From NCBI GenBank assembly GCA_027297085.1, contig JAPUIL010000125.1:1-12774 (forward strand): DNA of 12,774 bases, in the 5' to 3' direction. Below are positions 77 through 12,774 of this stretch, one piece after another. Under the pieces are notes generated by a model that saw only the letters and a program-made list of their open reading frames with translations, was not told where the DNA came from and made no database searches. The translations under genes and the position numbers were made by a program. Numbering within the stretch: the first letter of the stretch is position 1; the number at the start of each line of letters is the position of its first letter. The DNA comes from Verrucomicrobiota bacterium. GTDB lineage: Bacteria; Verrucomicrobiota; Verrucomicrobiia; Opitutales; UBA2995.

Positions 77-1297
77 TCAGCCATGGGCTTTTTTCAGCTC
101 CTCCTTAACGCGTATGGCTACGATATGTTCCTGTTTAGGCAACATACTAAAAGTAGTTATGTTAAACCCGTTCTCTTCAGGATGGGCAATTTCGACGGAA
201 GGAGATCCACTACGCAGTGCATCTTGAATATCGAGACCTGAAGCAGGAATTTTCGATCGATCCCAGGTCAATTTCAGCGTTGGAACATTGTTTGGATATT
301 CTGGAATATAATTCTCAACGGTTAGGTCATCCACTGATGAAACCACTTTGGCAATTAATTCGATCTGCTTTTGCCAACGTTTATATTCTTTATCCATATC
401 CATTTCCAGAAACCGCTCCAGGGCAATCCACATAGAAATGATTTCCTCCTTGTTCACCTTCATGCCACGACCGATGCGATCTGAATGCGGCGGCGCGTTA
501 AACCGGGCAGCTTCGATCAAATCTTTTCTGCCGAACAGCAGGCCGGCGCTTTGCGGACCGCGTATTCCCTTACCGCCGGAAAACGTCACCAGGTCAAAGC
601 CCATATCTGTGTAAAGGGACAACCGCTTTCTGGGCGGTGCACTCGCCGCAGCATCATTGAACGTAGGAATACCATACTTCTTGCCGATCTGGACAAACTC
701 GCGGGCTTTAACCGATCCATCGTTCGTGTGGGTATCGGTATAATACAGCATGGCCGTGTTTTTCTTGATGGCCTTGATCAGCTCTTTCCGTGAATTCACA
801 ACCACCAATTTTATACCACAATTGATGATGGCGTGGGTATACCCGACAATGTGTTCTTTTTGCACGATGACCTCGTTTTTCATTCCACTCAGATCGATGG
901 GAATTCTTTTGGCCTTATCTTCATCCGTGCCGGTTAAAACTGCCGCTGTGGCCAGGGTCATGGCAGATGCCGCACCGGCAGTGACCATGGCAGCTTCACA
1001 ACCGAGCATGCCAGCTATCTTTTTGCCTACCGCATCCTGCAATTCCACCAGCGAAACATATTCGTTTGAAGCGTAGTTATAGGCCTCAACCACTTCCCGG
1101 GGCATTAAACAGCCTGTCAGGGTGGTGTATGAACCGGCTGCGTTGATAAACGTTTTCAGTCCCAGCTCTTTGAAATAGTTTCTTCGGGGTGCAAGTGCCC
1201 CATAAGCCACATTTCCGGATAGTAACCCTCCGGCGGCAAAACCTCCCACCAGCGGCAAGCTGGAGAGCGTTTTTAATAATTTTCTTCTACTAATCAT
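77..1297 (-). CDS. Tat-exported SelA-like PLP-dependent enzyme (amino-sugar-acid ammonia-lyase type)
   Basis: 406 residues from the chosen ATG. This is a fold-type I PLP enzyme of the group related to L-seryl-tRNA(Sec) selenium transferase (SelA), whose non-selenium members include D-glucosaminate-6-phosphate ammonia-lyase (DgaE type). The PLP-binding lysine is probably K243 in FSGGKGIRGPQSAG, and the cofactor-ring Asp is D215 in FNDAAA. The N-terminus MISRRKLLKTL followed by a Gly/Ala/Leu-rich stretch to about residue 33 is a Tat signal, which suits a cofactor enzyme folded before export. The frame stays open upstream to 1408, but that extension lies in repeat-like DNA and would bury the Tat motif, so 1297 is preferred; the ribosome binding site there is weak. 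It lies 231 bp downstream of the RidA-family gene, and both point left. Known: these lyases release ammonia from 2-amino sugar acids through enamine intermediates. The exact substrate is not readable; the family is fairly certain. Confidence 0.85.
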   Translation of the reverse strand: MISRRKLLKTLSSLPLVGGFAAGGLLSGNVAYGALAPRRNYFKELGLKTFINAAGSYTTLTGCLMPREVVEAYNYASNEYVSLVELQDAVGKKIAGMLGCEAAMVTAGAASAMTLATAAVLTGTDEDKAKRIPIDLSGMKNEVIVQKEHIVGYTHAIINCGIKLVVVNSRKELIKAIKKNTAMLYYTDTHTNDGSVKAREFVQIGKKYGIPTFNDAAASAPPRKRLSLYTDMGFDLVTFSGGKGIRGPQSAGLLFGRKDLIEAARFNAPPHSDRIGRGMKVNKEEIISMWIALERFLEMDMDKEYKRWQKQIELIAKVVSSVDDLTVENYIPEYPNNVPTLKLTWDRSKIPASGLDIQDALRSGSPSVEIAHPEENGFNITTFSMLPKQEHIVAIRVKEELKKAHG

Positions 1298-1375
1298 AGT
1301 CTTTTCATAGTTACGAATTTCTAAGGGAGGTGAGGTCTTGACGGGATCGAGGTGTCGAGCTTGACGACCGAAGAG

Positions 1376-1405
1376 CGAGGGAGCGCACTGCTGTGCGTAA
1401 CAGAG
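1376..1405. repeat. Copy 1 of a hairpin-core repeat (shared with 5059-5087)
   Basis: In the spacer between the RidA-family gene and the SelA-like gene. A GGGAGCG lead-in at 1379 begins a 6-bp stem (1383-1388 with 1393-1398) and a 4-base loop, followed by AACAGAG. The same frame of invariant bases with a different stem sequence occurs at 5059-5087. GC-rich DNA around it (1330-1440) has further short repeats such as CTTGACG twice, and codes for nothing convincing. Confidence 0.55.
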
Positions 1406-1439
1406 CAAGGAGGAAAGAACACTCGGCAGGTCGGCCCGA

Positions 1440-1526
1440 GGATGAATCTACAACAAATTCCAGAGAGTTCATTCCAGTATGCATTCTAAATTTTTGGGAT
1501 TTCTAGAAAACCTTGTAGATTCATCC
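1440..1526. repeat. 14-bp perfect inverted repeat just downstream of the RidA-family stop codon
   Basis: GGATGAATCTACAA at 1440-1453 is the exact reverse complement of TTGTAGATTCATCC at 1513-1526, with 59 bases between. The outer arm lies 2 bases beyond the RidA stop codon at 1529, so the mRNA can form a long stem-loop at its 3' end. No T-run follows, so it is not a canonical intrinsic terminator. It could protect the transcript, or be the ends of a small insert. Confidence 0.6.
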
Positions 1527-1528
1527 GC

Positions 1529-2119
1529 TCAAGGCTTCAATTCCACGATCATCTCGATTTCCACCGGAATATTGCTGGGCAATGAACTCATGCCTACCGC
1601 GGCGCGCGCCGGCTTGCCATTGTCTCCGAAAATTTCTGTTAACAAGGCCGTAGCCCCGTTAATAACCGCTGGTTGTTGCGTGTAAGTGGGCGTGCAATTA
1701 ACCATGCCGTGCACTTTAACAATTCGCTTCACCCGGTCCAAACTGCCGATCTCGTTTTTCAAGGAGGATAATAGGGAAATCATGGTATCCCGGGCTGCTT
1801 GGTAACCCTCTTCCGTAGTCACATCCAACCCGACTTTTCCCTTAGTAGAACTCCCATCTGCTTGCTTCGGACCATGCCCTGATAGGAAAACCAGGTTGCC
1901 GGCGGTAACTGCGGGCACAAAGTGGTTATTAGGCCGGCCTGCCGTATTCAAAACGACTCCCGATTTTTTTAAGTTAGCTTCATAACCAGGAGTTGCATGA
2001 CTGGCCGAAAACTTTCGTTTCTGGTCACCCTCCTTGTTCGGAAAACCGACGGAAAAAAGAAATAGAAAAAAAGCGATACCGGCTATCGCAGTAGTGGTCA
2101 TATTAAACAGATGCTTCAT
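1529..2119 (-). CDS. Secreted RidA-family (YjgF/YER057c/UK114) enamine/imine deaminase
   Basis: 196 residues. The RidA domain spans about residues 45-196 and resembles the longer YjgF-like subgroup with the INGATALLTEIFG and LDRVKRIVKVHGMVN segments. R172 in PARAAVG is the conserved Arg that binds the substrate carboxylate in RidA proteins, and E187 in VEIE follows 15 residues later. In front of the domain is a leader (MKHLFNMTTTAIAGIAFFLFLFSVGFPNK) that reads as a Sec signal peptide or membrane anchor, which is unusual because most RidA proteins are cytoplasmic. The start could also be M7. Known: RidA hydrolyses reactive enamines/imines made by PLP enzymes to keto acids plus ammonia. A SelA-like PLP lyase directly downstream would supply such products, so the pair probably acts in sequence. 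It is separated from the upstream amidohydrolase by 261 bp and a terminator, so it probably has its own promoter. Confidence 0.85.
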   Translation of the reverse strand: MKHLFNMTTTAIAGIAFFLFLFSVGFPNKEGDQKRKFSASHATPGYEANLKKSGVVLNTAGRPNNHFVPAVTAGNLVFLSGHGPKQADGSSTKGKVGLDVTTEEGYQAARDTMISLLSSLKNEIGSLDRVKRIVKVHGMVNCTPTYTQQPAVINGATALLTEIFGDNGKPARAAVGMSSLPSNIPVEIEMIVELKP

Positions 2120-2345
2120 TGGATCTTTATACTGAGTTTATAGAACTTTGTTTTGTTTTATTAAATTGGTTCAAATGGCTATCGTAAATAGCACTAAGTT
2201 AAGGCAGGCGTGGAGAATGTGTAATCCGTTTCCATTCGAGAGGGTCAAACCTTGAATCCCGTATCCATTCGACAAGCTCATGGCAGGTGGCATGCAAGAT
2301 TGCAAGGAATGACCCTGTGGTCGTCAAAGCTTCGGAAATTCATCG
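2120..2345. other. Spacer with a direct repeat and a probable dispersed-repeat remnant
   Basis: No gene is seen. AATCCGTTTCCATTCGA at 2223-2239 is repeated with small changes at 2255-2272. The second copy runs on into ACAAGCTCATGGCAGG, which resembles a TTCGACAAGCTCAGG-like motif that I recall as widely scattered in environmental bacterial genomes (from memory, unchecked). AT-rich DNA next to 2119 probably carries the RidA-family promoter, but I cannot assign convincing -35 and -10 boxes. Confidence 0.35.
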
Positions 2346-2366
2346 AAAAAGCGCTTATCTTAGCGC
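2346..2366 (-). terminator. Intrinsic terminator of the amidohydrolase operon
   Basis: Read on the minus strand just after the amidohydrolase stop codon: GCGCT, a 6-base loop, AGCGC, then TTTTT (2350-2346). A short GC stem directly followed by a T-run, 14 bases beyond the stop codon, is the classic layout. It separates the amidohydrolase unit from the RidA-family gene. Confidence 0.75.
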
Positions 2367-2380
2367 CATTTGGGCTATCG

Positions 2381-3667
2381 TTATTCTGCTTCATCCCAGG
2401 CTGACTTGGAAATCCCGTTCAAGTCCCACACGATTTCTCCTCCCAAAATTGTAAGCTCACATTCAAGTTTGCGGCTACCGTCCATACGCGTTTCCTCCAC
2501 ATCAATGAATCCGAAATCTCCTTCCAATTGCCGAATCACAGCCACATCCGCCAAAGCACCTACACTGAGGTGACCCAGCTCTTCTTCGATGTGAACTACC
2601 TGCGCTGGCTTCCAAGTGGACGCTTCGATAACCTCCTGTAGTGACATACCCATATTGAGGAACTTCGACATTACGTTTATCTGGCTCTTCATACCCCCGT
2701 TCATACTGCCCGTGTGCAAGTCAGTGCTTATGGTTTGTGGTTTTACTCCCTGTTCTAAGGCAGGGATGGCCACGTACCATCTAAAACTTCCCGCGCCATG
2801 ACCCACATCCAAGATGATACCTCGCTCCACCGCTTTCTTCACGAACGGTTTCAATATTCCATTCTCATCGACTATGGATTCCCGCCCTGTTGAATCAGCA
2901 AAACAGTGGGTGAAAATATCACCTGGCCGAAGTTCTTCCAGAAAAAGCTGCTCAATGGACAGCGGAGGATCCGCACGTCCAAAGTCGACCATGATCGGCA
3001 CATTACTTAACCGGCCTGCTTCCACGGCCCGGCGCGTGGGCTCCCAATTGGGTCCTTTAAAATGCGCCAATTTTATTCCTACAATTTCCTCAAACTCCAT
3101 AACCCGCATTGCAGTGAGCCTCGGATCCATGTCAGCGAGGTCCTGCTCATCGGGATCTCCTCTCATGCCCGCACCTACAATATTCAAAAAGACTTTAACA
3201 CGCGTCTTGGACTTATCGATGGTCTGCACCTTATACTGCTCAAACGATTTCCATCCTGGACCTCCAGCATCCACCACGGTTGTGACTCCGTAACGCAGGG
3301 TAAAACCATCTGGGGGCAAGGCGTTGTAGCTGTTAGCCAAATAATCGCCCTCACTGGTTCCCCAAAACATATGCGCGTGCAGGTCGATAAGCCCCGGAGT
3401 GACATACAATCCAGATGCGTCGACTACCAGAGCCGCTTCATTTGAAGTAATACCCTTTTCGACCGCGGCTATTTTATCGTCCTTGATCGCCACGTCGTAG
3501 ATGCCGTCGATCTGGTTTTTCGGATCAATCACGTGACCTCCCGTCACCAGAATATCATAAGTCTGCCCACTAACAGCAAAAGGAAGAAGAACAAAGAGCA
3601 ACAAGAAGGCGTTAAGCCTGAATTTACACACAATATCAGTTAGTAATTTTATTAATCCCATAGTCAT
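2381..3667 (-). CDS. Exported amidohydrolase/deacetylase-family metallohydrolase
   Basis: 428 residues from the ATG at 3667, which lies 7 bases past the stop of the upstream dehydratase and suggests coupled translation; M3 (3661) is equally possible. A hydrophobic segment at about residues 20-34 ending in AVSGQT is a Sec signal peptide. The mature part matches amidohydrolase-superfamily deacetylases (EF_0837/Atu3266-like group): DILVTGGHVIDP, metal site HAH at 97-99, probable carboxylated K199 in VGIKLAH, His in THCF, GHGAGSF, and the strand-8 Asp in STDLHTGS. The strand-5 position expected to be His (MVH) reads MVDFG. Known: this group hydrolyses N-acyl or ester bonds of small polar substrates; some relatives are encoded beside SelA-related PLP enzymes, the combination seen here. 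Deacylation of an N-acyl amino-sugar acid is a plausible but unproven role. Confidence 0.85.
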   Translation of the reverse strand: MTMGLIKLLTDIVCKFRLNAFLLLFVLLPFAVSGQTYDILVTGGHVIDPKNQIDGIYDVAIKDDKIAAVEKGITSNEAALVVDASGLYVTPGLIDLHAHMFWGTSEGDYLANSYNALPPDGFTLRYGVTTVVDAGGPGWKSFEQYKVQTIDKSKTRVKVFLNIVGAGMRGDPDEQDLADMDPRLTAMRVMEFEEIVGIKLAHFKGPNWEPTRRAVEAGRLSNVPIMVDFGRADPPLSIEQLFLEELRPGDIFTHCFADSTGRESIVDENGILKPFVKKAVERGIILDVGHGAGSFRWYVAIPALEQGVKPQTISTDLHTGSMNGGMKSQINVMSKFLNMGMSLQEVIEASTWKPAQVVHIEEELGHLSVGALADVAVIRQLEGDFGFIDVEETRMDGSRKLECELTILGGEIVWDLNGISKSAWDEAE

Positions 3668-3674
3668 ATTGTTT

Positions 3675-4967
3675 CTACCAGGCAGCGACTGAATCATCCT
3701 CATGCCAGAGTTGCGGCATGGCACGCGTACCCAAAAACGGATATTTTGCCAAGTCTTCTTCGGTTAATTCAAATCCGAGACCGGGTTTATCAGATAAAGG
3801 AAAGTAGCCATCGACCATCCTCATGGCGGGGAAACCAAACCACTCTTCCCAGATTTTCTCCTTGGTGCCGGGTTCAATACCACTGCATACTTCCTGAACC
3901 AGGAAATTGGGCATGGCGGCATCCACGTGCAGGGTGGCGAGTCCACCAATCGGTCCTTCACAGGCATGGGGCGCCATTTGCACACCTGCCGATTCACAAA
4001 GCGCGCCAATCTTCCATAAGGCTGTGATACCCCCCGTATGCACAATGTCGGTTTGAATGATATCGACTATGCCCTCTTCGACGAGCTCGCGACAGTCAAA
4101 AGCGGTTACCAGCCGTTCGCCGGTGGCAATCGGAACCGTAGTTTCCCGGGCAATACGGGCCATGGCTTGTTTGTTTTCCGGAGGACAAGGCTCTTCAATA
4201 AACATCAGGTTGAGTGGCTCCACCTCTTTGCAGATGATCCTGGCAACTGCCGGACTGGTTTTGGCATGGAAATCAATGCCAATATCGATCTTGTCACCCA
4301 GTCCCTCGCGCAAACGGGCAATCGCGTTTACCGCTCGATCGATTGACTGATTAGTGGCTATCCATTCATAAGCTCCCGGAATTCCGCTTTTGAACGCGGT
4401 TACGCCCAACTCGTCCGCTTTATCGCGCAATTCCCTCATATCCTCAAGCGTGCTCACCCGGGCATGATAATAACCGCGGACTCCGCGTGCATCCATGGGA
4501 CCCCCGAGCAGACGGTAAACCGGCTGACCCAGCACCTTTCCGCGAATATCCCACAAGGCATGATCGATACCGGAAATGGCTGAACCCACCACCGGACCTG
4601 CCCGGTAAAAGGAATGGACATACATCGACTGCCATAGGTGTTCCACCATCATGGGATTTTTACCCACCAGCAATTCACTCAGGTCGTGGACCGCAGCCAT
4701 GGCAGCTCCGGCTTTTCCCTCCAGAGTCGCTTCACCCCATCCATACACGCCTTCATTGGTTTCGATTTTAACGAACACGTAAGGTCGATCGGAATTTGGA
4801 TCGACCGTTACACCAAAGGTTTTGATTGCGGTAATTTTCAGGCCGGATCCACCAGAAAGAATGGCGTCCTCACTCCCGACTTGTGCAATCAAACTGCCAC
4901 TCCTTAGCAACGAGGCTCCGGAAAGTCCCATCCACATAGAATCTTTAATAAAGTTCCGTCGGTTCAT
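3675..4967 (-). CDS. Tat-exported galactonate-dehydratase-like enolase-superfamily enzyme
   Basis: 430 residues. MNRRNFIKDS followed by a hydrophobic stretch to about residue 29 is a Tat signal. After it come the enolase-superfamily lid domain (about 43-160) and barrel, similar to the mandelate racemase/D-galactonate dehydratase group. All expected catalytic residues are visible: K193 (AFKSG), metal ligands D232 (with H234, IDFHAK), E258 (FIEEP) and E284 (ATGERL), then the D307/H334 dyad (QTDIVHTGG, APHACEGP). The DxH form of the first ligand is typical of galactonate-type dehydratases, which turn an aldonate into its 2-keto-3-deoxy form. Exact sugar specificity cannot be read. It is followed by the amidohydrolase with only 7 bases between them, so they are almost certainly co-transcribed. 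The ribosome binding site is weak. Usual family members are cytoplasmic, so the Tat leader is notable. Confidence 0.88.
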   Translation of the reverse strand: MNRRNFIKDSMWMGLSGASLLRSGSLIAQVGSEDAILSGGSGLKITAIKTFGVTVDPNSDRPYVFVKIETNEGVYGWGEATLEGKAGAAMAAVHDLSELLVGKNPMMVEHLWQSMYVHSFYRAGPVVGSAISGIDHALWDIRGKVLGQPVYRLLGGPMDARGVRGYYHARVSTLEDMRELRDKADELGVTAFKSGIPGAYEWIATNQSIDRAVNAIARLREGLGDKIDIGIDFHAKTSPAVARIICKEVEPLNLMFIEEPCPPENKQAMARIARETTVPIATGERLVTAFDCRELVEEGIVDIIQTDIVHTGGITALWKIGALCESAGVQMAPHACEGPIGGLATLHVDAAMPNFLVQEVCSGIEPGTKEKIWEEWFGFPAMRMVDGYFPLSDKPGLGFELTEEDLAKYPFLGTRAMPQLWHEDDSVAAW

Positions 4968-4982
4968 GAGTTTAATTCAGAT

Positions 4983-5304
4983 GTTTCAAAAAATCGTACC
5001 GAGCAACGCGACATCAACCAATGTGATGAAGAGTAAGGCGCAGTCTGCAAGCACGCGCGGGAGCGTAGAATACTACGCAACCAAGAGTGTTGCGGGCTGG
5101 AACGCAGCTCTTCGCGCAGGTCGATTTTAGCCTTCGTACCGAGCCCTTGGCGACAGCGAAGCGAAAATAACAAGTGCTTTAAGACGTCACTTCTTTTGAA
5201 ATTTCCATGATCGATAATAAATTTCATTTCACACTGATTCTTTACTGGTTTATTTCTGCACTTGGGTGATGTCGCATTCTGCTCGGTACGAAGGCGTTTG
5301 AAAC
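4983..5304. repeat. Repeat element filling the 336-bp spacer between two enolase-superfamily genes
   Basis: No gene is seen here. The ends are long imperfect inverted repeats: 4983-5016 (GTTTCAAA, TCGTACCGAGCA, GCGACATCA) against 5267-5304 read backwards with the same blocks in the same order. A further copy of the block, GCCTTCGTACCGAGC at 5130-5144, is a perfect 15-bp inverse of 5281-5295. Between them lie the hairpin core 5059-5087 and a second possible hairpin (AAGAG/CTCTT plus TGCG/CGCA, 5083-5112). The right end reaches the stop codon of the upstream gene (5304-5306). It looks like a small non-autonomous element or structured dispersed repeat rather than a promoter. Confidence 0.7.
5059..5087. 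repeat. Copy 2 of the hairpin-core repeat
   Basis: GGGAGCG lead-in, 6-bp stem GCGTAG (5063-5068) with CTACGC (5073-5078), 4-base loop AATA, then AACCAAGAG. It matches copy 1 at 1379-1405 in the flanks, while the stem pairs differ in a compensated way. It lies inside the larger element 4983-5304. Confidence 0.6.
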
Positions 5305-6485
5305 TATGAAGCGATCTGGTAGCGCTTTACAGCATCCTCATTTAATGTGATCCCCAAACCGGGCCCGGTGGGCAGTGAAAGAAAACCGGCCTTAACCGAT
5401 TCTACGTCCTGGGATAGCAATTCCTTCCTCATGGCCCGGTCCTTGGCATCTTGAGGCAATGGAATCTCCTGCATAAAAAAGTTTGGGATGGAGGCAGCCA
5501 CTTGTAATCCAGAAGCTGTGGCAATGGGTCCACCTGTATTTACCGGGGCAACGGCCACGTAATGAGTCTCCGCATGGGCGGCCAGTTTTCGGATGGCATC
5601 AATCCCAAGAAGAGACACATCCGGTCGAACAACATCCAACGATCCACTTCTCAACCAGGCCTGAAAATCTTCTAAACCTGTTGCCATTCGACCCAGCCCA
5701 ACCGGAGTAACCGATTCTGCAGCTATACGCTGGCGGGCCGTATTCGTAGTCTGCTTACAAGGTTCATCCAGCCACAGTAAGCGAAAGGGCTCTAGCTCTC
5801 GAGCCAGGTAAGCCGCCTGCGATGGCCGGAGCTTGCCCTGGCAATCGATGGCAAAGTCACTTCCTTCTCCCGCAGCCTCGCGCAACCGTTCCAGTAAATG
5901 CCGGGTATCACGATAGAACTGGCGTCCGCGGATACCTTCGCCTGGCAACAATAGCGGAACAATAAACGCCCGATGCCCCGCCTCGCTTGCCCGATCCAAA
6001 GCTTTAAATAAGTCGCGTTCAGAACTGCCATCGAGTCTGGCCAAGGCCCTTGCCTTGGTCCGCGTTGCACCGGACACGACTTCGTAGACGGGAGCCTCAG
6101 AAACTTTTCCGGCAATATCGAGAAGCGCAATGTCCAAGGCAGAAAGAAATGAATTGGTGTTTGAATTATCCGATTGAGACAATTCCCACAAAAGGGATTG
6201 CCGTCCTTGCGCATCCCGACCTATCACCTCAGCTTTGCGCTTGATTACCGCTGCCAATGTAGACCGCACATCAAGGCCACCAGGCATTTCAGCCAAGCCC
6301 TCGATGCCGGCATCGGTGGATAACCGAACGATGATTGAGCTGCGCTTGCTTACCGGTTCGCGGACGGCAGTTGCCTTTAAACCGGTGATCGCGATAGTGG
6401 GATTGGGCCTATGAGTCCGGCCAGATTCGGCGGATGCCGTGAGCCAGGCTCGCTTCATGACCTGTTGAGTTGATAATTGGGGCAT
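5304..6485 (-). CDS. Enolase-superfamily protein with a degenerate active site (probable pseudoenzyme)
   Basis: 393 residues with the full two-domain mandelate racemase-like layout (lid about 30-145, barrel to about 375) and the family ending PTGPGLGITLNEDAVKRY. The usual residue ladder is broken. D214 (AIDCQG) is kept. The second ligand position is D240 (LDEP instead of EEP). The third, exactly 26 residues on as in the paralogues, is R266 (VGLGRM instead of TGER). The dyad Asp remains (D289), but the His position reads Val (APVNTGGP, V315 against APHACEGP). The lysine-motif position is I175. No Tat or Sec leader is visible, unlike its three paralogues. The frame is intact over its full length, so it seems maintained and not simply decaying. 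It is first in the minus-strand series, divergent from 6690. Alternatives are a redesigned active site, or a structural or regulatory partner of the exported dehydratase. Confidence 0.8.
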   Translation of the reverse strand: MPQLSTQQVMKRAWLTASAESGRTHRPNPTIAITGLKATAVREPVSKRSSIIVRLSTDAGIEGLAEMPGGLDVRSTLAAVIKRKAEVIGRDAQGRQSLLWELSQSDNSNTNSFLSALDIALLDIAGKVSEAPVYEVVSGATRTKARALARLDGSSERDLFKALDRASEAGHRAFIVPLLLPGEGIRGRQFYRDTRHLLERLREAAGEGSDFAIDCQGKLRPSQAAYLARELEPFRLLWLDEPCKQTTNTARQRIAAESVTPVGLGRMATGLEDFQAWLRSGSLDVVRPDVSLLGIDAIRKLAAHAETHYVAVAPVNTGGPIATASGLQVAASIPNFFMQEIPLPQDAKDRAMRKELLSQDVESVKAGFLSLPTGPGLGITLNEDAVKRYQIAS

Positions 6486-6689
6486 ACTGTTTTGCTGAGA
6501 TCAGGGGTTGAAAATGTCATCCGGACGAGACGCCTGAAGATGGGCAATTATCCGGGTTAAAAAAACAAAAGCAAGAGTTCACTAACACAATCAGCAGACT
6601 AAGAGGAAACAGGTTTGCCAGGTAGGAATAATTTCCCTAAGCAAATGTCAGCTTTCATCAAAGCACGAACCCTATTACATCAATCAGAT
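6486..6689. promoter_or_regulatory. Divergent intergenic region between the two enolase-superfamily transcription units
   Basis: Both neighbours are transcribed away from this stretch, so promoters for both must lie in it or just inside it. ATCCGG occurs twice in direct orientation (6519-6524 and 6550-6555), 31 bp apart, close to three helical turns, which could be regulator half-sites. A clear purine-rich SD-like AGAGG (6602-6606) lies 8 bases before an in-frame TTG at 6615. I could not assign -10 and -35 boxes with confidence. Confidence 0.35.
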
Positions 6690-8084
6690 ATGAGAATAAA
6701 ATCCCTGCACAGTGGTCGTCGCAACTTTCTAAAAGCAGCAGGTCTCGGCGGTCTCAGCCTGGCCGGTATGACTTCGTGCTCGATCGAAGACCAGATCGCC
6801 TATGCCACACAACACGTGAACCGAAACTCCTCTCCGTCCAAATTGAAGATCACCGATATGCGGATCGCGGAAATTTCCGGAGTAGTTTTCCGAACACCCA
6901 TTGTTCGGATCTATACCAACCAGGGCATTGTAGGTCATGGGGATGTGCGTGACGGTTCCGCCAAAGAATACGCGCTCTTTCTTAAAGCCCGATTGCTCGG
7001 CGAAAATCCCTGTAACGTGGAACGCTTGTTTAAAAAAGTGAGCCAGTTCGGCAGCCATGCTCGTCAGGGTGGAGGCGTGTCCGGAGTTGAAATGGCACTC
7101 TGGGATATCGTGGGCAAGGCCTATGGAGTACCCGTATATCAATTACTGGGTGGTAAGTACCGGGACAAAGTTCGGGTTTATTGCGATACAACTACATCGC
7201 CTGATCCACACGAATATGCACGACGGATGCAGGAAAGAATCGATATGGGCTACACCGCTCTAAAGATGGATATCGGAATTGGTCTCATAAAAGATGTGCC
7301 TGGCGCCCTCATAAATTCGCCCTATGGCGACAATACACCTTGGGAATCCGAATATCGGGACTACCGAATGACGAAGCATCCTTTCACCCGGACGCAAATC
7401 ACCGAGAAGGGCATGGATAAACTTATGGAATTTCTCGATGTGATGCGCTCAAAGATCGGATACGAGATACCTATGGGCACCGACCACTGGGGACACTTCG
7501 GAGTGAACGAAGCCATCAAGATCGCCAAGGCAACCGAGCCCTACACGCTGGCATACATTGAAGATATTATTCCCTGGCAGGAAACGGACCAATGGAAAGA
7601 AATCACCCAATCCACCTCTACTCCCACTCAAACCGGTGAGGATATTTACATGTTGGAAAACGGTTTTCAGGAGTTAATCGATACTCATGCGGTTGATATT
7701 GTGCACCCGGACCCGAATACGGCGGGCGGAATTCTTGAGACCAAGAAAATTGGTGACTACGCCTCCAAACACGGCATCGGTTTCATGCTTCACCACGCTG
7801 CCAGTCCGGTATCATTCATGGGTTGTGTGCATAGCGCAGCCGCCACCGAAAATTTTATGTGGCTGGAACATCACGCCGTCGATAAACCCAAATGGGAAGA
7901 CTTGGTAACCGGTGTGGAAAAACCGATCGTGCAGAATGGTTATGTAAATGTACCGGACACCCCGGGTCTCGGAGTCGAACTCAACGAAGAAGTTGTCAAA
8001 GAATACCTGGTAGAAGGCGAAAAGCTATTCGCTCCTACTCCGGAATGGGACGAAATCCGCGCATGGGATCGGCTATGGAGCTGA
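6690..8084 (+). CDS. Tat-signal (possibly lipoprotein) enolase-superfamily dehydratase
   Basis: 464 residues from the ATG at 6690. The leader MRIKSLHSGRRNFLKAAG, then a hydrophobic run ending GMTSC, is a Tat signal with a borderline lipobox (C30), so the protein may be a lipoprotein. The barrel has the full ladder: K192-x-D194 (LKMDIG), D265 (TDHWG), E291 (YIEDI), E317 (TGEDIY), D341 (HPDPNTAGG) and H368 or H369 (LHHAASP). About 50 extra residues (195-245) sit between the Lys motif and the first metal ligand, as in mannonate-dehydratase-like branches. Metal ligands are spaced 26 and 26 residues apart, as in its paralogues. A sugar-acid dehydratase is the best reading; the substrate is unknown. 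The frame is open to a TTG at 6615, preceded by the best SD in the area, and to an ATG at 6645, so the leader could be longer. It overlaps the next gene by 10 bases. Confidence 0.85.
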   Translation: MRIKSLHSGRRNFLKAAGLGGLSLAGMTSCSIEDQIAYATQHVNRNSSPSKLKITDMRIAEISGVVFRTPIVRIYTNQGIVGHGDVRDGSAKEYALFLKARLLGENPCNVERLFKKVSQFGSHARQGGGVSGVEMALWDIVGKAYGVPVYQLLGGKYRDKVRVYCDTTTSPDPHEYARRMQERIDMGYTALKMDIGIGLIKDVPGALINSPYGDNTPWESEYRDYRMTKHPFTRTQITEKGMDKLMEFLDVMRSKIGYEIPMGTDHWGHFGVNEAIKIAKATEPYTLAYIEDIIPWQETDQWKEITQSTSTPTQTGEDIYMLENGFQELIDTHAVDIVHPDPNTAGGILETKKIGDYASKHGIGFMLHHAASPVSFMGCVHSAAATENFMWLEHHAVDKPKWEDLVTGVEKPIVQNGYVNVPDTPGLGVELNEEVVKEYLVEGEKLFAPTPEWDEIRAWDRLWS

Positions 8085-9529
8085 GGTTTTCAAATCAAAT
8101 GCTCGATTGTCGATTTTGGATGGTGCTGGGTGCACTATTTTTGCTTCCGCTTCTCGTACAAGCCGATCGTAGCGGCGAGGAAGTTTACAATCTTTATTGC
8201 ATGCAGTGCCACGGTCCGAATATGGAAGGCGGACAGGCTGCGAGTTTTATAGACGGAGTTTGGAATTATGGTTCCGGGATTGGCCAACACAGACGAAATA
8301 TTGCATTTGGTATCATAGGCACACAAATGGTCGCTTGGGACAAAGTGCTAACCGATCCCGAAATTGATGCGGTGCTGGAATACATTCTAGAAGCTGAAGC
8401 AAATTTGAAGGTCCAACCTCCGCCTCCGCCCACTCACTTTGAAACGGAAGACTATCGGCTGAATATTGAAATCCTCGCGGAAGGACTCCAGCAGCCATGG
8501 GGAATCACTTTTTTAGACAAACGCACAGCGATTTTTACAGAATTCGATGGCAAGCTACGTTTACTGGTCGACAACAAAGTCGTCGACCAACCGATCTCCG
8601 GAACACCGGCAGCCTTGCGCCGACCTAGCGGAAACAAAATGGGATTCATGGACATCGCCGCTGATCCAAATTACACAGAAAACGGATGGATATACTTAAC
8701 CTATGCGCACGAAGCAGAACATCCAGTGCAAGGGGAGCCCTTCAATCGATCCGCTTTGCGAGTTGTTCGTGGTCGAATAAGAAACGGCTCCTGGGTAGAT
8801 GAGGAGATCATATACTCTACCGCTCCGAAACACTACCTGCTCAACACAGGCCACATCGGCTCGCGTCTACTATTTGATCGTGAGGGTTATCTCTATTTCA
8901 GTACGGGAGACCGGGACGAAATGATGGTGGCTCAAGACCTAAATGTTCCCTACGGTAAAATTCACAGAATCTATCCGGATGGTTCCGTTCCCGAGTCCAA
9001 TCCCTTTTTCGCTATGGGCAAAGTGGGCGCTTTACCGACAATCTACGCCTATGGGTCCCGCAATGCGCAGGGCCTGGCAATGCACCCGGTGACGGGTGAC
9101 ATTTGGTCCACAGAACACGGTCAGATGGGCGGGGACGAGCTAAATAAAATCGAACCCGGCGTTAACCTGGGCTGGCCGGTTATCACCCTCGGACTGGACC
9201 GCGACAATACCCCTCTAACACCCTACAAGGAATGGCCTGGTATGGTTCAGCCTAAGCATTATTGGACACCCTCGCCCGCAATTGGTGCGATCGAATTTTG
9301 CACGAGTCCACTATTTCCCAAATGGGAAAACAACCTTCTGGTTGCAGCCTTAAAACACAAAAACATCCGCCGGCTTGTCCTGGAAGGAGATAAAGTAGTT
9401 AAAGAGGAATTTATCCTTCGTGATTGCGGACGTATTCGCGACATCTCTACAGGCCCTGATGGTTCTATTTATGTGCTAGTTGACCTAAGAGGATTTATCC
9501 TGCGACTGACTCCCGACACCTTACCATAA
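8075..9529 (+). CDS. Cytochrome c-PQQ sugar dehydrogenase fusion (glucose/sorbosone dehydrogenase family)
   Basis: 484 residues from the ATG at 8075; M9 (8099) is an equally good start and avoids overlap with the upstream gene. Residues 10-30 (FWMVLGALFLLPLLVQA) form a Sec signal peptide. A small cytochrome c domain follows with haem motif CMQCH (42-46) and probable axial M85 (GTQMVAW). A proline linker (115-119) leads to a beta-propeller of the aldose sugar dehydrogenase type: GITFLD, MGFMDIAADPNY, probable catalytic H260 (TGHIGSRLLF), STGDRDE, AYGSRNAQGLA, TEHGQMGGDELN. Known: these soluble PQQ enzymes oxidise aldoses to lactones in the periplasm; the attached haem would pass electrons onward. 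The 10-bp overlap with the dehydratase gene suggests coupled production, and the chemistry links up: lactone to aldonate to dehydration. PQQ synthesis genes are not in the window. Confidence 0.88.
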   Translation: MELRFSNQMLDCRFWMVLGALFLLPLLVQADRSGEEVYNLYCMQCHGPNMEGGQAASFIDGVWNYGSGIGQHRRNIAFGIIGTQMVAWDKVLTDPEIDAVLEYILEAEANLKVQPPPPPTHFETEDYRLNIEILAEGLQQPWGITFLDKRTAIFTEFDGKLRLLVDNKVVDQPISGTPAALRRPSGNKMGFMDIAADPNYTENGWIYLTYAHEAEHPVQGEPFNRSALRVVRGRIRNGSWVDEEIIYSTAPKHYLLNTGHIGSRLLFDREGYLYFSTGDRDEMMVAQDLNVPYGKIHRIYPDGSVPESNPFFAMGKVGALPTIYAYGSRNAQGLAMHPVTGDIWSTEHGQMGGDELNKIEPGVNLGWPVITLGLDRDNTPLTPYKEWPGMVQPKHYWTPSPAIGAIEFCTSPLFPKWENNLLVAALKHKNIRRLVLEGDKVVKEEFILRDCGRIRDISTGPDGSIYVLVDLRGFILRLTPDTLP

Positions 9530-9736
9530 TGAAAGCATACATCAATTTCCGGTCTGAATCTTGCATGGAGACAAAATACTTTCGCAAAAATGTAGGCCAG
9601 ATTTTTGTGAGCATTCGTAGTATACTAAATTTCGACAACGATCACAATTATGATAACGATTTTCTCCGCCTTCCATCTTCAAACATCTGGCATTCAATCT
9701 GAACCCTTGAACCACAAAACCTTGAACCCTTAATCC
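9530..9736 (+). promoter_or_regulatory. Spacer upstream of the third Tat dehydratase, with small palindromes
   Basis: No gene is seen. TAGTATACTA at 9619-9628 is a perfect 10-bp palindrome containing a TATACT -10-like box. ATCACAATTATGAT at 9641-9654 is a near-palindrome with two mismatched positions, operator-like in size. A short repeat of the type CTTGAACCC appears twice just before the start codon (9701-9713, 9720-9731). Together these suggest that the downstream gene may have its own promoter and regulator site, but no -35 box at good spacing is clear. Confidence 0.35.
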
Positions 9737-10978
9737 ATGAAACTTCAATCACGTCGTTCCTTCCTTACTTCCCTGGCCGGTATTAGCACCGCAACCTGGT
9801 TTGCCACCTACGCACGTTTGAGCGCAGCCGAAAGTGGAAAGGTCAAAATCACTGACATCAAAACCATGCTTCTGAATGGTCCTCGCACTTATACCCTGGT
9901 AAAGGTGGAAACGGACGCAGGGATATTCGGCATAGCAGAGGCTTATGGTTCGCCGGGGCTGGGAATAGTGGATGCTATTCACGGCGTCAAAGAATTGTTG
10001 ATTGGCAAAGATCCTTTGCAAATCGACCGGCTTTACACCGGTTACCGCTACACAGACGGCAGCGCCCATCACCAGCAGCGCGCCATGAGCGGTATCGAAA
10101 TGGCACTTTGGGATTTAGCAGGAAAGTTGTTAAACGTTCCAACTTCAACATTACTGGGTGGCCGGTTCCGCGACCGAGTAAGACTTTATGATCACGCCCA
10201 CCCTTCAGACTTTCTGGACAAAAAGGCCTGTCGCGATTGGGCGGACGAAGTGATGGAAAACCCGAATGGCATAAACTGTCACAAATTTGGCCCTTTCCGC
10301 ACCAGCCCGGAAGAAGATTTTGGAAAAGATCCCTCAAACCGGCTACTTTCAAGCAAAGAACTTCGAAATCTTCGGAAAGGTTTTGAAAACGCCAGAGAAG
10401 CGCTCGGGTGGGACCACGACATCATGATCGGTTGTCATTGGGAATTTGACCTACGTTCGGCAATCGACCTGGCTGAACTGCTGGCAGACATCAAACCACT
10501 CTGGTTGGAAGATCCACTGCCCGTCCCCTACTCGGAAAGCTGGAAACGACTGACCGAATCTTCGCCGGTTCCAATTTGCACCGGAGAAAACTGGATGCGC
10601 CGGTCGGAGGCCCTGCCTTTCGTAATCAATTCAGCCATCGATATCTTACATCCCGACCTTCGAAATTCCGGTGGTTTCCTGGAAAGTAAACGCATGGCAG
10701 ACCTGGCCGATCTCTATTTCTTACCCATGGCCAACCACAACACCGGCAGCATCGTCAATGGTATGGCCTCTGTTCAATGGGCATCATCCATTCGCGATTA
10801 CCTGGCTTGTGAAACGGTGTTCTTTAACGGAGGCTGGATGGACGATGTCATTGTTCACAATGAACCTCTATCCAAGAACGGCTTTGTTGAGCTTACCGAT
10901 AAACCCGGCCTCGGCATAGAGCTCGATCCCGATGTGGTGAAGGCGCATCTGGTGCCAGGCGAAACCTGGTGGGGTTGA
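9737..10978 (+). CDS. Tat-exported enolase-superfamily protein with Asp-to-Gly change at the first metal ligand
   Basis: 413 residues. MKLQSRRSFLTSLAG and a short hydrophobic stretch ending about residue 31 (LSAAES) are a clear Tat signal. The mandelate racemase-type fold is complete, ending in TDKPGLGIELDPDVVKAHL. E258 (WLEDP), E284 (CTGENW), D307 (HPDLRNSGG) and H334 (MANHNTGS) are all present. The first ligand, always 26 residues before the second in its paralogues (D232 in the 3675-4967 protein), is here G232 in MIGCHWEF. The codon is GGT, one transition from the Asp codon GAT. C233 or H234 might replace it, or metal binding may be altered. WLEDP and the HPD segment place it nearer the 6690-8084 protein and mannonate/galactonate-type dehydratases than the others. 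It is 207 bp downstream of the PQQ dehydrogenase gene. Function as a sugar-acid dehydratase is likely only if metal binding survives. Confidence 0.85.
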   Translation: MKLQSRRSFLTSLAGISTATWFATYARLSAAESGKVKITDIKTMLLNGPRTYTLVKVETDAGIFGIAEAYGSPGLGIVDAIHGVKELLIGKDPLQIDRLYTGYRYTDGSAHHQQRAMSGIEMALWDLAGKLLNVPTSTLLGGRFRDRVRLYDHAHPSDFLDKKACRDWADEVMENPNGINCHKFGPFRTSPEEDFGKDPSNRLLSSKELRNLRKGFENAREALGWDHDIMIGCHWEFDLRSAIDLAELLADIKPLWLEDPLPVPYSESWKRLTESSPVPICTGENWMRRSEALPFVINSAIDILHPDLRNSGGFLESKRMADLADLYFLPMANHNTGSIVNGMASVQWASSIRDYLACETVFFNGGWMDDVIVHNEPLSKNGFVELTDKPGLGIELDPDVVKAHLVPGETWWG

Positions 10979-11213: not shown

Positions 11214-12774
11214 ATGCGTAAGGAAACGGATCACAAAGAGAATTTCAAACGACAGTCGGAGAGAGCAAACAGCGAGATACTTTCTTTCGCGCAGCAACGT
11301 CTCTGGTTTCTTGATAAGTTGATGGGACCCAACCCTGTCTACAACATCGGTCGACAACTGAAGTTGGTCGGTGATTTAGACAAGGAAGCATTGCGCCGGA
11401 GCATGAACGAGATTGTGCGTCGCCACAACGTATTGAGGTCGAGTTTCCGCGAAGAGATGGGAGAACCGATCCAGCTAATAAATGACCACCTGACAATAGA
11501 GCTGCCGGTGGTAAGCCTGGAGGAACTTAAGGAAGATAAGCGGAAGTTGGAGGCAATTCGACTGGAGAAAGAAGAAGCTGAGAGACCGTTCGACCTGGGA
11601 AATGGTCCGCTGATACGTGCAATGCTCGTGCGCATGGAACCGCAACACCACCTTCTGAACATTACAATTCATCACATCGTTTTTGATGGCTGGTCCATTG
11701 ATGTATTCAACCGAGAACTTTCTATTCTCTATTCTACCTATCGGAAAAATGCGGTTTCACCACTAGAGGTATTGACGATGCAGTACCCCGAGTATGCAGT
11801 TCGCCAACGCGAATGGTTGCAGGGAGAGGCGTTGGAAAAGGAAATGAGTTATTGGAGGAGACAGCTGGCGAATCTCCCTGTGATTGATCTTCCTACCGAC
11901 CATCCACGGCCGAAAATGCCAAGTTTCAAAGGCAGTAACCTAAACATGCCCCTCACCTCAGACTTGACTGAGCAATTGGAGGTTTTGGGGCGGAAGAACA
12001 AAGCAACCAATTACATGGTCCTGCTTTCGGCCTTCATGGTTTTGCTCCACCGTTACACGAGTCAGAATGAAATTGTAGTGGGCAGCCCTATAGCAGGGAG
12101 GACGCGTGTGGAGCTCGAGCAGATGATCGGATTTTTTGTCAACACGCTGATTCTGCGAACGGACCTGTCGGGGGATCCACCTTTCGACGAATTGCTGGCG
12201 CGAGTGGTTGATGTTTCATTGAATGCGTTTACCAATCAACAGGTTCCGTTTGAAAAACTTGTCGAGGAACTACAGCCCGAGCGTGAATTGAACCGTAACC
12301 CACTTATCCAGATCATGTTCGCCTTTCAGAACGCAAAGGATGATGGATTGAAATTGGACTCGTTGGATGTAGAAGAGCTACCAAGGGAGGAAGGCACGTC
12401 CAAGTTTGATCTGACCCTGTTAGCTCGAAAGCAGGATGGAATGCTTGAAATTAAAGCAAACTACGCCACAGACCTGTTCAATAAAAGTACGATAGAACGG
12501 ATGCTCGGTCATTACGGGAAATTACTGGAAGGGATCGCCGACGATCCGGGCAAGACCATTTCCAAGTTACCAATTCTGACGGAATCTGAAGAACGACGCA
12601 TGTTGGTGGGATGGAACAATACAGAAAAAGCATATCCAAAGGACCTGTGCGCACACCACCTTTTCGAGAACCAGGCGAAAAGGACTCCAGACAAAGTGGC
12701 TCTTGTATTCGATGGACAAACCATGACCTATGCAGAGTTGGATGAAAAAGCTAACCAAATAGCAAATCATCTTT
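11214..12774 (+). CDS. Non-ribosomal peptide synthetase, N-terminal part (condensation domain plus start of adenylation domain), runs off the window
   Basis: The frame stays open from the ATG at 11214 to the window end (520 codons), so this is the 5' part of a longer gene. Residues about 22-450 form a complete condensation domain: LSFAQQRLWFLDKL, catalytic HHIVFDG (153-159), YWRRQL, VGSPIAGR, IGFFVNTLILRTDL, and VPFEKLVEEL with NRNPLIQIMF. The linker PILTESEERRMLVGWNNTE then leads into an adenylation domain, recognised by LFENQAKRTPDKVALVF and MTYAELDEKANQIANHL. Its specificity residues are beyond the edge. The signature segments look like ordinary L-to-L condensation domains, although a protein beginning with a C domain may be either a lipid-initiated first module or a later subunit. 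No signal peptide is present, so it is cytoplasmic. The context before it (sugar-acid enzymes) does not suggest a link. Confidence 0.92.
   Translation, partial: MRKETDHKENFKRQSERANSEILSFAQQRLWFLDKLMGPNPVYNIGRQLKLVGDLDKEALRRSMNEIVRRHNVLRSSFREEMGEPIQLINDHLTIELPVVSLEELKEDKRKLEAIRLEKEEAERPFDLGNGPLIRAMLVRMEPQHHLLNITIHHIVFDGWSIDVFNRELSILYSTYRKNAVSPLEVLTMQYPEYAVRQREWLQGEALEKEMSYWRRQLANLPVIDLPTDHPRPKMPSFKGSNLNMPLTSDLTEQLEVLGRKNKATNYMVLLSAFMVLLHRYTSQNEIVVGSPIAGRTRVELEQMIGFFVNTLILRTDLSGDPPFDELLARVVDVSLNAFTNQQVPFEKLVEELQPERELNRNPLIQIMFAFQNAKDDGLKLDSLDVEELPREEGTSKFDLTLLARKQDGMLEIKANYATDLFNKSTIERMLGHYGKLLEGIADDPGKTISKLPILTESEERRMLVGWNNTEKAYPKDLCAHHLFENQAKRTPDKVALVFDGQTMTYAELDEKANQIANHL

What the first reader, a model, noticed from the sequence alone, without database searches (positions are those of the whole stretch)
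77..3667. Apparently exported deacetylase, RidA and PLP ammonia-lyase set: a candidate periplasmic amino-sugar-acid deamination route
Seen: three neighbouring minus-strand genes encode an amidohydrolase of the deacetylase group, a RidA-family protein and a SelA-like PLP enzyme, and all three have signal peptides (Sec, Sec/anchor, Tat). Known: SelA-like lyases deaminate 2-amino sugar acids through enamines, and RidA hydrolyses such enamines. Inference: the order N-deacylation, PLP elimination, RidA hydrolysis would turn an N-acyl amino-sugar acid into a 2-keto-3-deoxy acid plus ammonia outside the cytoplasm. I know of no described pathway of this kind located in the periplasm.
Basis: partly seen in the sequence, partly recalled or inferred. 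Interest (0 to 1): 0.7.

Follow-up and report, generated by a model that had tools for sequence, protein, structure and literature searches.

The report
Exported deacetylase, lyase and RidA trio
Several groups of bacteria appear to send a deacetylase, an ammonia-releasing vitamin-B6 enzyme and its RidA clean-up partner out of the cytoplasm together, which suggests that amino-sugar acids are stripped of their nitrogen outside the cell interior.

Summary
Window 77-3667 (minus strand, an Opitutales MAG) encodes a Tat-leadered SelA-like PLP enzyme, a Sec/anchor RidA and a Sec-leadered amidohydrolase. The trio, with leaders, recurs in the same genus and in Bacteroidota, Acidobacteriota and Planctomycetota. 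On a Rid tree the leadered Rids fall in two separate places, so Rid was apparently exported twice. [quoted passage not shown] a published DGL H163A mutant releases enamine, which would explain a Rid partner. A cytoplasmic counterpart is in print: OngB/OngC/OngD of chitin oxidation, with other lyase and deacetylase types. Leadered neighbours (sugar dehydrogenase-cytochrome c, lactonase, sugar-acid dehydratases, RraA-like aldolases) point to sugar acids. The substrate is inferred; N-acyl beta-hydroxy-D-amino acids remain a serious rival. Leaderless SelA-amidohydrolase pairs also occur, and many SelA-like copies stand alone. Verdict: real and conserved, a new variant of a known kind, substrate unproven.

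The parts
77..1297 (-). SelA-like fold-type I PLP ammonia-lyase candidate, 406 aa, Tat leader SRRKLLK
   Evidence: family profile matches DGL 7lc0 at E 2.7e-70; PLP Lys in 77 of 77 aligned rows
1338..1450 (.). About 100-bp dispersed repeat in the RidA-SelA gap (not thought to belong to the enzyme function)
   Evidence: 36 matches in the own MAG (the query place included), 23 in G001, 5 in G002, 2 in G004
1529..2119 (-). RidA/YjgF-family protein with N-terminal hydrophobic leader or anchor, 196 aa
   Evidence: PF14588 and PF01042 above gathering; Arg172 in 16 of 16 aligned Rids
2381..3667 (-). Amidohydrolase of the deacetylase group (cog3964, label recalled) with Sec leader, 428 aa
   Evidence: NF006689 above cut-off; H97, H99, K199, H254, D316 in 17 of 17 aligned rows
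3675..4967 (-). Tat-leadered galactonate-dehydratase-type enolase (Enol1), 7 bp upstream of the amidohydrolase
   Evidence: NF010624 360.6 bits against cut-off 311; gap and leader
5304..6485 (-). Enolase-superfamily paralogue (Enol2), no leader seen, catalytic motifs altered
   Evidence: IDCQ where Enol1 has IDFH, no TGE motif
6615..8084 (+). Tat-leadered enolase-superfamily protein (Enol3)
   Evidence: PF13378/PF02746; GRRNFLK leader
8075..9529 (+). Cytochrome c + glucose/sorbosone dehydrogenase fusion with a Sec-type leader (start chosen by eye)
   Evidence: PF07995 326.5 bits, PF13442; N-terminus
9737..10978 (+). Tat-leadered enolase-superfamily protein (Enol4)
   Evidence: PF13378/PF02746; SRRSFLT leader

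Best explanation
The three genes encode an exported enzyme relay that removes nitrogen from an N-acylated 2-amino acid with a 3-hydroxyl group, most likely an N-acetyl-2-amino-2-deoxy-aldonate such as N-acetylglucosaminate. The amidohydrolase removes the acyl group. The Tat-exported PLP enzyme, which Tat could carry folded with its cofactor, eliminates water to give an enamine. It lacks the DGL residue that protonates the enamine in the active site, so it releases it, and the co-exported Rid protein hydrolyses enamine/imine to a non-phosphorylated 2-keto-3-deoxy acid plus ammonia. Shown here: genes, leaders, conservation, active-site residues, absence of the phosphate site. Inferred: substrate, order of steps, enamine release, actual location outside the cytoplasm, and the link to the neighbouring sugar-acid enzymes.
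For: Trio in 17 of the 58 loci (L024 is the same contig as in G004, L067 is rearranged), with leaders by rule or eye on the trio proteins whose N-termini are complete. Among 18 SelA places in four genomes that lay in no locus examined before, 3 have an amidohydrolase and 3 a Rid within 4 kb, 2 both, against 0.16 and 0.20 expected. Leadered Rids need two changes on the Rid tree. DGL Lys213 kept in 77 of 77 rows, Arg226 as R/K in 64, Arg346 in 0, Arg332 in 4, Arg301 in 8, His163 in 1. DGL H163A releases enamine (PMC9529869). The Ong pathway has the same three functions with RidA essential (PMC9537276). Sugar-acid neighbours with leaders: GSDH-cytochrome c in 5 of 5 loci of the Lunatimonas/Cyclobacteriaceae type, lactonase in L031, RraA-like aldolase in 8 of 8 Acidobacteriota loci that hold one beside leadered SelA; exported RraA and dehydratase plus a KDG-kinase relative in L098.
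Against: No activity data. The nearest solved amidohydrolase, 2ogj (Atu3266), is recalled as an acetyl-mandelate esterase with weak N-acetyl-D-serine activity. No LPMO in 7 of 7 genomes, so the Ong source of N-acetylglucosaminate is missing there. His163 is also absent from leaderless cousins without a nearby Rid, and L081 has the His pair with a leaderless Rid about 0.9 kb away. Many SelA-like copies lack both partners: 11 of 13 in G057. Three leadered Rids (L105, L108, L115) are not within 4 kb of a SelA. No KDPG aldolase was found in G000 or G004, both incomplete, though it was in 7 of 9 genomes.
Confidence: 0.5

Rival explanations
1. The trio is an exported degradation set for N-acyl beta-hydroxy-D-amino acids (D-serine, D-threonine, hydroxyaspartate types), not for sugar acids. 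The chemistry is the same: deacylation, elimination of water, Rid hydrolysis, giving simple 2-keto acids.
For: A leaderless SelA-amidohydrolase pair in the same order is followed by a BhcC-like 3-hydroxy-D-aspartate aldolase relative (L084, 266.6 bits against a cut-off of 690). OngC also deaminates D-serine and D-threonine. Recalled: Atu3266 weakly hydrolyses N-acetyl-D-serine.
Against: Neighbours are largely sugar-acid enzymes: GSDH-cytochrome c, lactonase, galactonate-dehydratase type, RraA-like aldolases, KDG-kinase relative, with SusCD, sulfatases and GH43 near some loci. [quoted passage not shown]
Confidence: 0.27
2. The three exported proteins are neighbours for regulatory reasons and do not act in one pathway; the exported Rid is a general scavenger of enamines or has another role, and the amidohydrolase may be an esterase.
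For: Many SelA-like copies occur without the partners; [quoted passage not shown]
Against: Repeated adjacency in different gene orders in four phyla, with two separate leadered Rid lineages.
Confidence: 0.15
3. The SelA-like protein catalyses another PLP reaction on a substrate outside the cytoplasm, such as racemisation or another lyase step.
For: NCBIfam DgaE models match only below cut-off: 163.4 against 385.3 and 137.2 against 600 bits.
Against: Best solved relatives are DGL 7lc0 and 8t7j, with the PLP lysine and mostly the carboxylate arginine kept; a Rid partner fits an elimination.
Confidence: 0.08

Closest known systems
Ong pathway of chitin oxidation, OngB/OngC/OngD (PMC9537276: abstract, 12 passages, sections 13 and 17 read; PMC12017989: outline, abstract and start of introduction seen)
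   Same: Deacetylase, PLP ammonia-forming deaminase and RidA encoded together; each gene needed for growth on N-acetylglucosaminate; product 2-keto-3-deoxygluconate.
   Different: OngB has a D-aminoacylase-like fold and OngC is a fold-type III PLP enzyme; OngB and OngC are predicted cytoplasmic. Here the lyase is SelA-like (fold-type I, recalled), the amidohydrolase is nearest to 2ogj/8je0, and all three carry leaders.
[quoted passage not shown] 7lc0, 7lce; PMC9529869: abstract and section 14 part 1 read)
   Same: Same family by profile; PLP lysine and mostly the carboxylate arginine kept.
   Different: Phosphate arginines and His163 absent; leader present; Rid and deacetylase partners; below the NCBIfam cut-offs.
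cog3964 amidohydrolases (2ogj Atu3266, 2ics EF0837; gene names recalled)
   Same: Closest solved relatives of the window amidohydrolase include these (E 1.6e-46 and 3.5e-36).
   Different: The window protein has a leader. The biochemistry of Atu3266 is recalled, not read; no paper on it was found in the library.
Rid proteins of solved structure 3d01 and 9bk9 (PA0814)
   Same: Closest solved relatives of the window Rid (E 6.7e-28 and 3.2e-21).
   Different: The window Rid has about 45 residues with a hydrophobic stretch before the matched domain.

Membership tests
[quoted passage not shown]
   137.2 against 600 and 163.4 against 385.3 bits
[quoted passage not shown] the paper passage calls it Lys-217) | tested here: met
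   K in 77 of 77 rows, window included
[quoted passage not shown]
   Window T, A, F; Arg346 in 0, Arg332 in 4, Arg301 in 8 of 77 rows
[quoted passage not shown]
   Gap in the window; His in 1 of 77 rows (L081); window has one His in the column of His162
NF006689 amidohydrolase/deacetylase family metallohydrolase | Score above cut-off | tested here: met
   430.1 against 371 bits
NF006689 amidohydrolase/deacetylase family metallohydrolase | Metal-site residues | tested here: met
   H97, H99, K199, H254, D316 in 17 of 17 rows; their role as ligands is from general knowledge
NF006689 amidohydrolase/deacetylase family metallohydrolase | N-deacetylase activity | not testable with these tools
   needs an enzyme assay
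Rid (RidA/YjgF) family | PF01042 or PF14588 above gathering | tested here: met
   46.3 against 27.3 and 55.3 against 35 bits
Rid (RidA/YjgF) family | Catalytic arginine for imine deamination | tested here: met
   Arg172 in 16 of 16 rows; equivalence to E. coli Arg105 recalled
Ong oxidative chitin pathway | Deacetylase, PLP deaminase and RidA encoded together | tested here: met
   window and 17 of 58 loci, by family only, not by activity
Ong oxidative chitin pathway | OngC is a fold-type III PLP enzyme | tested here: not met
   window lyase matches SelA and DGL
Ong oxidative chitin pathway | LPMO in the genome | tested here: not met
   PF03067 in 0 of 7 genomes; the own MAG is 76% complete
Exported (Sec/Tat) set | Leader on each protein | tested here: met
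   own rule and eye; TatC in 9 of 9 genomes
Exported (Sec/Tat) set | Protein found outside the cytoplasm | not testable with these tools
   needs fractionation or proteomics

The most novel reading that the evidence does not exclude
A whole non-phosphorylating route for sugars and amino sugars runs outside the cytoplasm in several phyla. A dehydrogenase-cytochrome c oxidises the sugar at C1, a lactonase opens the lactone, and exported dehydratases (plain sugar acids) or the deacetylase-lyase-Rid relay (amino-sugar acids) converge on 2-keto-3-deoxy acids, which an exported RraA-type aldolase splits or a transporter imports. Rid proteins were drawn into this location at least twice, so an enamine hydrolase would be a true pathway enzyme there.
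Probability: 0.4. Interest if true: 0.85.

Novelty: new variant of a known kind. Interest (0 to 1): 0.68.

Why it matters
PLP enzymes and Rid proteins are usually thought of as cytoplasmic (general knowledge). A conserved exported pair would mean that reactive enamines are made and quenched outside the cytoplasm, and would give bacteria in four phyla a way to draw carbon and ammonia from amino-sugar acids before import. It also gives a direct test of the unexplained need for RidA in the Ong pathway: a lyase family without the DGL proton donor should release enamine, and Rid should speed product formation. Some sources now call these lyases 'selenocysteine synthase', 'L-seryl-tRNA(Ser) seleniumtransferase' or 'aminotransferase class V-fold' and the amidohydrolase 'dihydroorotase' (names), so a function would correct many annotations.

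Tried and rejected
Considered and rejected: (a) SelA proper (selenocysteine synthase): DGL 7lc0 and 8t7j match far better than SelA chains. (b) A phosphorylated substrate as for DgaE: the phosphate arginines are absent. (c) LPMO-made N-acetylglucosaminate as in the Ong pathway: no LPMO in 7 of 7 genomes; GH20 is present in 7 of 7, which does not decide. (d) A known RNA element in the 231-bp RidA-SelA gap: no Rfam match at gathering level in the window; the repeat folds with z -2.0 on one strand and -0.4 on the other.

Led nowhere: literature searches for SelA-like with RidA and amidohydrolase (0 papers), cog3964 (1 paper, not opened), 'periplasmic RidA', glucosaminate with periplasm and ammonia lyase, 'Rid family' with twin-arginine and exported, 8JE0/8WZY/Atu3266/8T7J (2 unrelated), RidA family with periplasm, aldonic acid, PQQ, amidohydrolase (10 of 17 listed; only PMC9537276 relevant by its listing) and (12 of 3,816 listed, none relevant by title). 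PMC4433059 holds none of six terms sought; nothing else of it was read. Structure prediction and fold search were not used. PADLOC, PHROGs and the viral, phage, plasmid, metagenome and E. coli collections were not searched.

Limits: leader calls rest on my own rule and on eye. In one search the rule flagged the start of the domain in several leaderless proteins (Poribacteria loci, L079, L084), which I call leaderless. For the tree I set the labels by hand: 12 rows marked 'none' by the script were taken as leadered. Rows dropped: L046 and L047; L111 from the Rid tree; partial hits of G002 and G004 and a weak third hit of G011, where split Rid domains of G057 and G058 were also merged. (33 SelA places in 10 genomes: 16 with amidohydrolase, 15 with Rid, 14 both; 0.24 and 0.32 expected) is partly circular, since 8 of the 10 genomes were already known from fetched loci to hold a trio; I lean on the 18 unseen places instead. 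Trees are quick ones with open forks and long-branch warnings from the tool; the number of changes does not tell gains from losses. The 58 loci were found through six peptide patterns of the query and favour close relatives.

Changed after checking: the leaders of neighbouring dehydrogenases, lactonase and RraA-like proteins were looked at only; because the RraA-like proteins proved leadered, the probability of the novel case was raised from 0.35 to 0.4.
Full report
What is there. The window is contig C30 of a 4.85-Mb MAG, 76% complete; the nearest named relative among the loci is an uncultured Opitutales MAG. On the minus strand lie, in order of transcription, an enolase-like gene with altered motifs (Enol2), a Tat-leadered galactonate-dehydratase-type enolase (Enol1), an amidohydrolase 7 bp behind it, RidA and the SelA-like enzyme, with gaps of 261 and 231 bp. 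On the plus strand lie two more Tat-leadered enolases and a cytochrome c-glucose/sorbosone dehydrogenase fusion with a Sec-type leader, then the start of an NRPS gene.

Leaders. All three proteins of the finding have N-terminal leaders beyond their domains. Among the best 119 homologues listed for each (the searches were capped), my strict rule finds leaders in 79 Rids, 106 SelA-like proteins (115 with an RR motif) and 83 amidohydrolases, and in 0 of 2375 internal control segments. By eye many of the missed ones have leaders too; of the 40 unflagged Rids I read 31 as truly leaderless, most of them about 152 aa long and 55-66% identical to the window Rid: the exported Rids have close leaderless cousins. 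TatC is present in 9 of 9 genomes searched.

Conservation. Of the 58 loci, 17 hold all three genes and 21 hold SelA with an amidohydrolase. Gene order differs: amidohydrolase-Rid-SelA in Opitutales, Rid-SelA-amidohydrolase in loci of the Lunatimonas/Cyclobacteriaceae type, SelA-Rid-SelA-amidohydrolase in most Acidobacteriota loci with the trio, and a multi-domain leadered Rid divergent from amidohydrolase-SelA in Planctomycetota (three Rid stretches in L048). In 10 genomes, 33 SelA places have an amidohydrolase within 4 kb in 16 cases and a Rid in 15 (expected 0.24 and 0.32), both in 14. Eight of these genomes were already known to hold a trio, so the fair figure is that of the 18 places in no locus seen before: 3 with an amidohydrolase and 3 with a Rid (expected 0.16 and 0.20), 2 with both. 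Those two, in G053 and G054, are second trios with a lipoprotein-type Rid. In G057, 11 of 13 SelA copies have neither partner nearby.

Two leadered Rid lineages. On a tree of 80 Rid domains the leadered ones need two changes, also when only starred branches are trusted. One lineage matches PF14588 as well as PF01042 (window, L093) and has Sec or lipoprotein leaders; it holds the Opitutales and Lunatimonas/Cyclobacteriaceae-type Rids. The other matches PF01042 alone in the members tested (L065, L048) and has mostly Tat-type leaders; it holds the Acidobacteriota, Bacteroidales and Planctomycetota Rids. In both lineages members lie beside leadered SelA and amidohydrolase genes; three leadered Rids (L105, L108, L115) do not. 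With leaderless relatives around both, two gains are the simplest reading, though the method does not tell gains from losses and warns of long branches. The SelA tree of 77 rows also needs two changes; 17 of its 20 leaderless rows form one clade (Poribacteria, Gemmatimonadota, Latescibacterota, L084 and others).

Active sites. In PMC9529869 (section 14, part 1) Arg301, Arg332 and Arg346 lie near the phosphate, Arg226 near the carboxylate, and His163 protonates the enamine; H163A releases the enamine into solution. In 77 SelA-like rows the PLP lysine is kept in 77, Arg226 is R or K in 64, Arg346 is kept in 0, Arg332 in 4, Arg301 in 8, His163 in 1. Four of five Opitutales rows have one His in that loop, aligned with His162, and the loop is two residues shorter, so a replacement donor cannot be excluded. 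His163 is absent from the leaderless rows as well (19 of 20), so its loss is a trait of the family and not of the trio. The amidohydrolase keeps its metal-site residues in 17 of 17 rows and the Rid its arginine in 16 of 16.

Context. A GSDH-cytochrome c gene lies about 0.8 kb upstream of Rid, with a CBM9-type gene between, in L026, L027, L028, L030 and L034 (Pfam run on L028 only); all five have lipoprotein-like or Sec-like N-termini by eye. A GSDH fusion lies beside the amidohydrolase in L083 and in the window cluster. An SMP-30/gluconolactonase gene with a leader precedes the amidohydrolase in L031. Eight Acidobacteriota loci hold an RraA-like aldolase gene beside leadered SelA, all eight with a hydrophobic leader by eye, while RraA-like proteins near leaderless SelA (L059, L076, L084) have none: the aldolase's leader follows that of the lyase. 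TonB receptors and MFS transporters are also near in Acidobacteriota, SusCD in L093, sulfatases and GH43 in L082, GH43 in L030. L098 holds an exported RraA, a Tat-leadered dehydratase and a kinase closest to the kinase half of a KDPG-aldolase/sugar-kinase fusion and to KDG kinases, each below its family cut-off. These point to sugar acids. The BhcC-like gene in L084 points to hydroxy-amino acids.

Comparison with the known. The Ong pathway (PMC9537276; abstract, passages, sections 13 and 17) has the same three functions, with RidA essential and its role unknown, and OngB and OngC predicted in the cytoplasm. OngC is of another fold and OngB of the D-aminoacylase type, so the present trio is not a member of that system; it probably works like it. 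I found no description of an exported Rid or of this chemistry outside the cytoplasm in searches of the open-access library, which lacks most subscription papers.

Verdict. Leaders and conservation of the trio: well supported. Relay of deacylation, elimination and Rid hydrolysis: likely. Amino-sugar-acid substrate: the best single guess, about one in two.

Noticed in passing
window 1338-1450: About 100-bp dispersed repeat between RidA and SelA, 36 matches in the own MAG and 23 in G001; one strand folds better than shuffles (z -2.0); no Rfam match.
   Followed up: partly
window 5304-6485: Enolase-superfamily paralogue without visible leader and with altered catalytic motifs (IDCQ, no TGE), perhaps not catalytic.
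   Followed up: no
window 3675-10978: Three Tat-leadered sugar-acid-dehydratase-type enolases around a leadered cytochrome c-sugar dehydrogenase fusion: itself an apparent exported sugar-acid cluster.
   Followed up: partly
window 11214-12774: Start of an NRPS gene (condensation domain, then the beginning of an AMP-binding domain), cut by the window end.
   Followed up: no
L054:11818-13524 and L055:11095-11394: An Acidobacteriota SelA paralogue carries an extra C-terminal stretch of about 100 aa; a separate 99-aa gene that weakly matches the SelA profile follows leaderless SelA in several loci (L053, L055, L062, L063, L072, L080); no Pfam match for the small gene.
   Followed up: partly
L048:6843-8306, L049:1820-3106, G057:C188: Multi-domain Rid proteins beside SelA-like genes: three Rid stretches in L048 (leadered) and three matches in one frame of G057:C188; L049 is a leadered relative not scanned for domain number.
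   Followed up: partly
L054, L056, L057, L060, L065, L066, L067, L069: RraA-like aldolases with hydrophobic leaders in 8 of 8 Acidobacteriota loci that hold one, unlike those near leaderless SelA.
   Followed up: partly
L084:11905-13002: BhcC-like PLP gene behind a leaderless SelA-amidohydrolase pair.
   Followed up: no
G057 (genome of L025): Thirteen SelA-like matches in one acidobacterial MAG, 11 without amidohydrolase or Rid nearby.
   Followed up: no
G001:C1:1430313-1430795 (L115): A second leadered Rid gene in a same-genus genome, not near its SelA-like gene.
   Followed up: no
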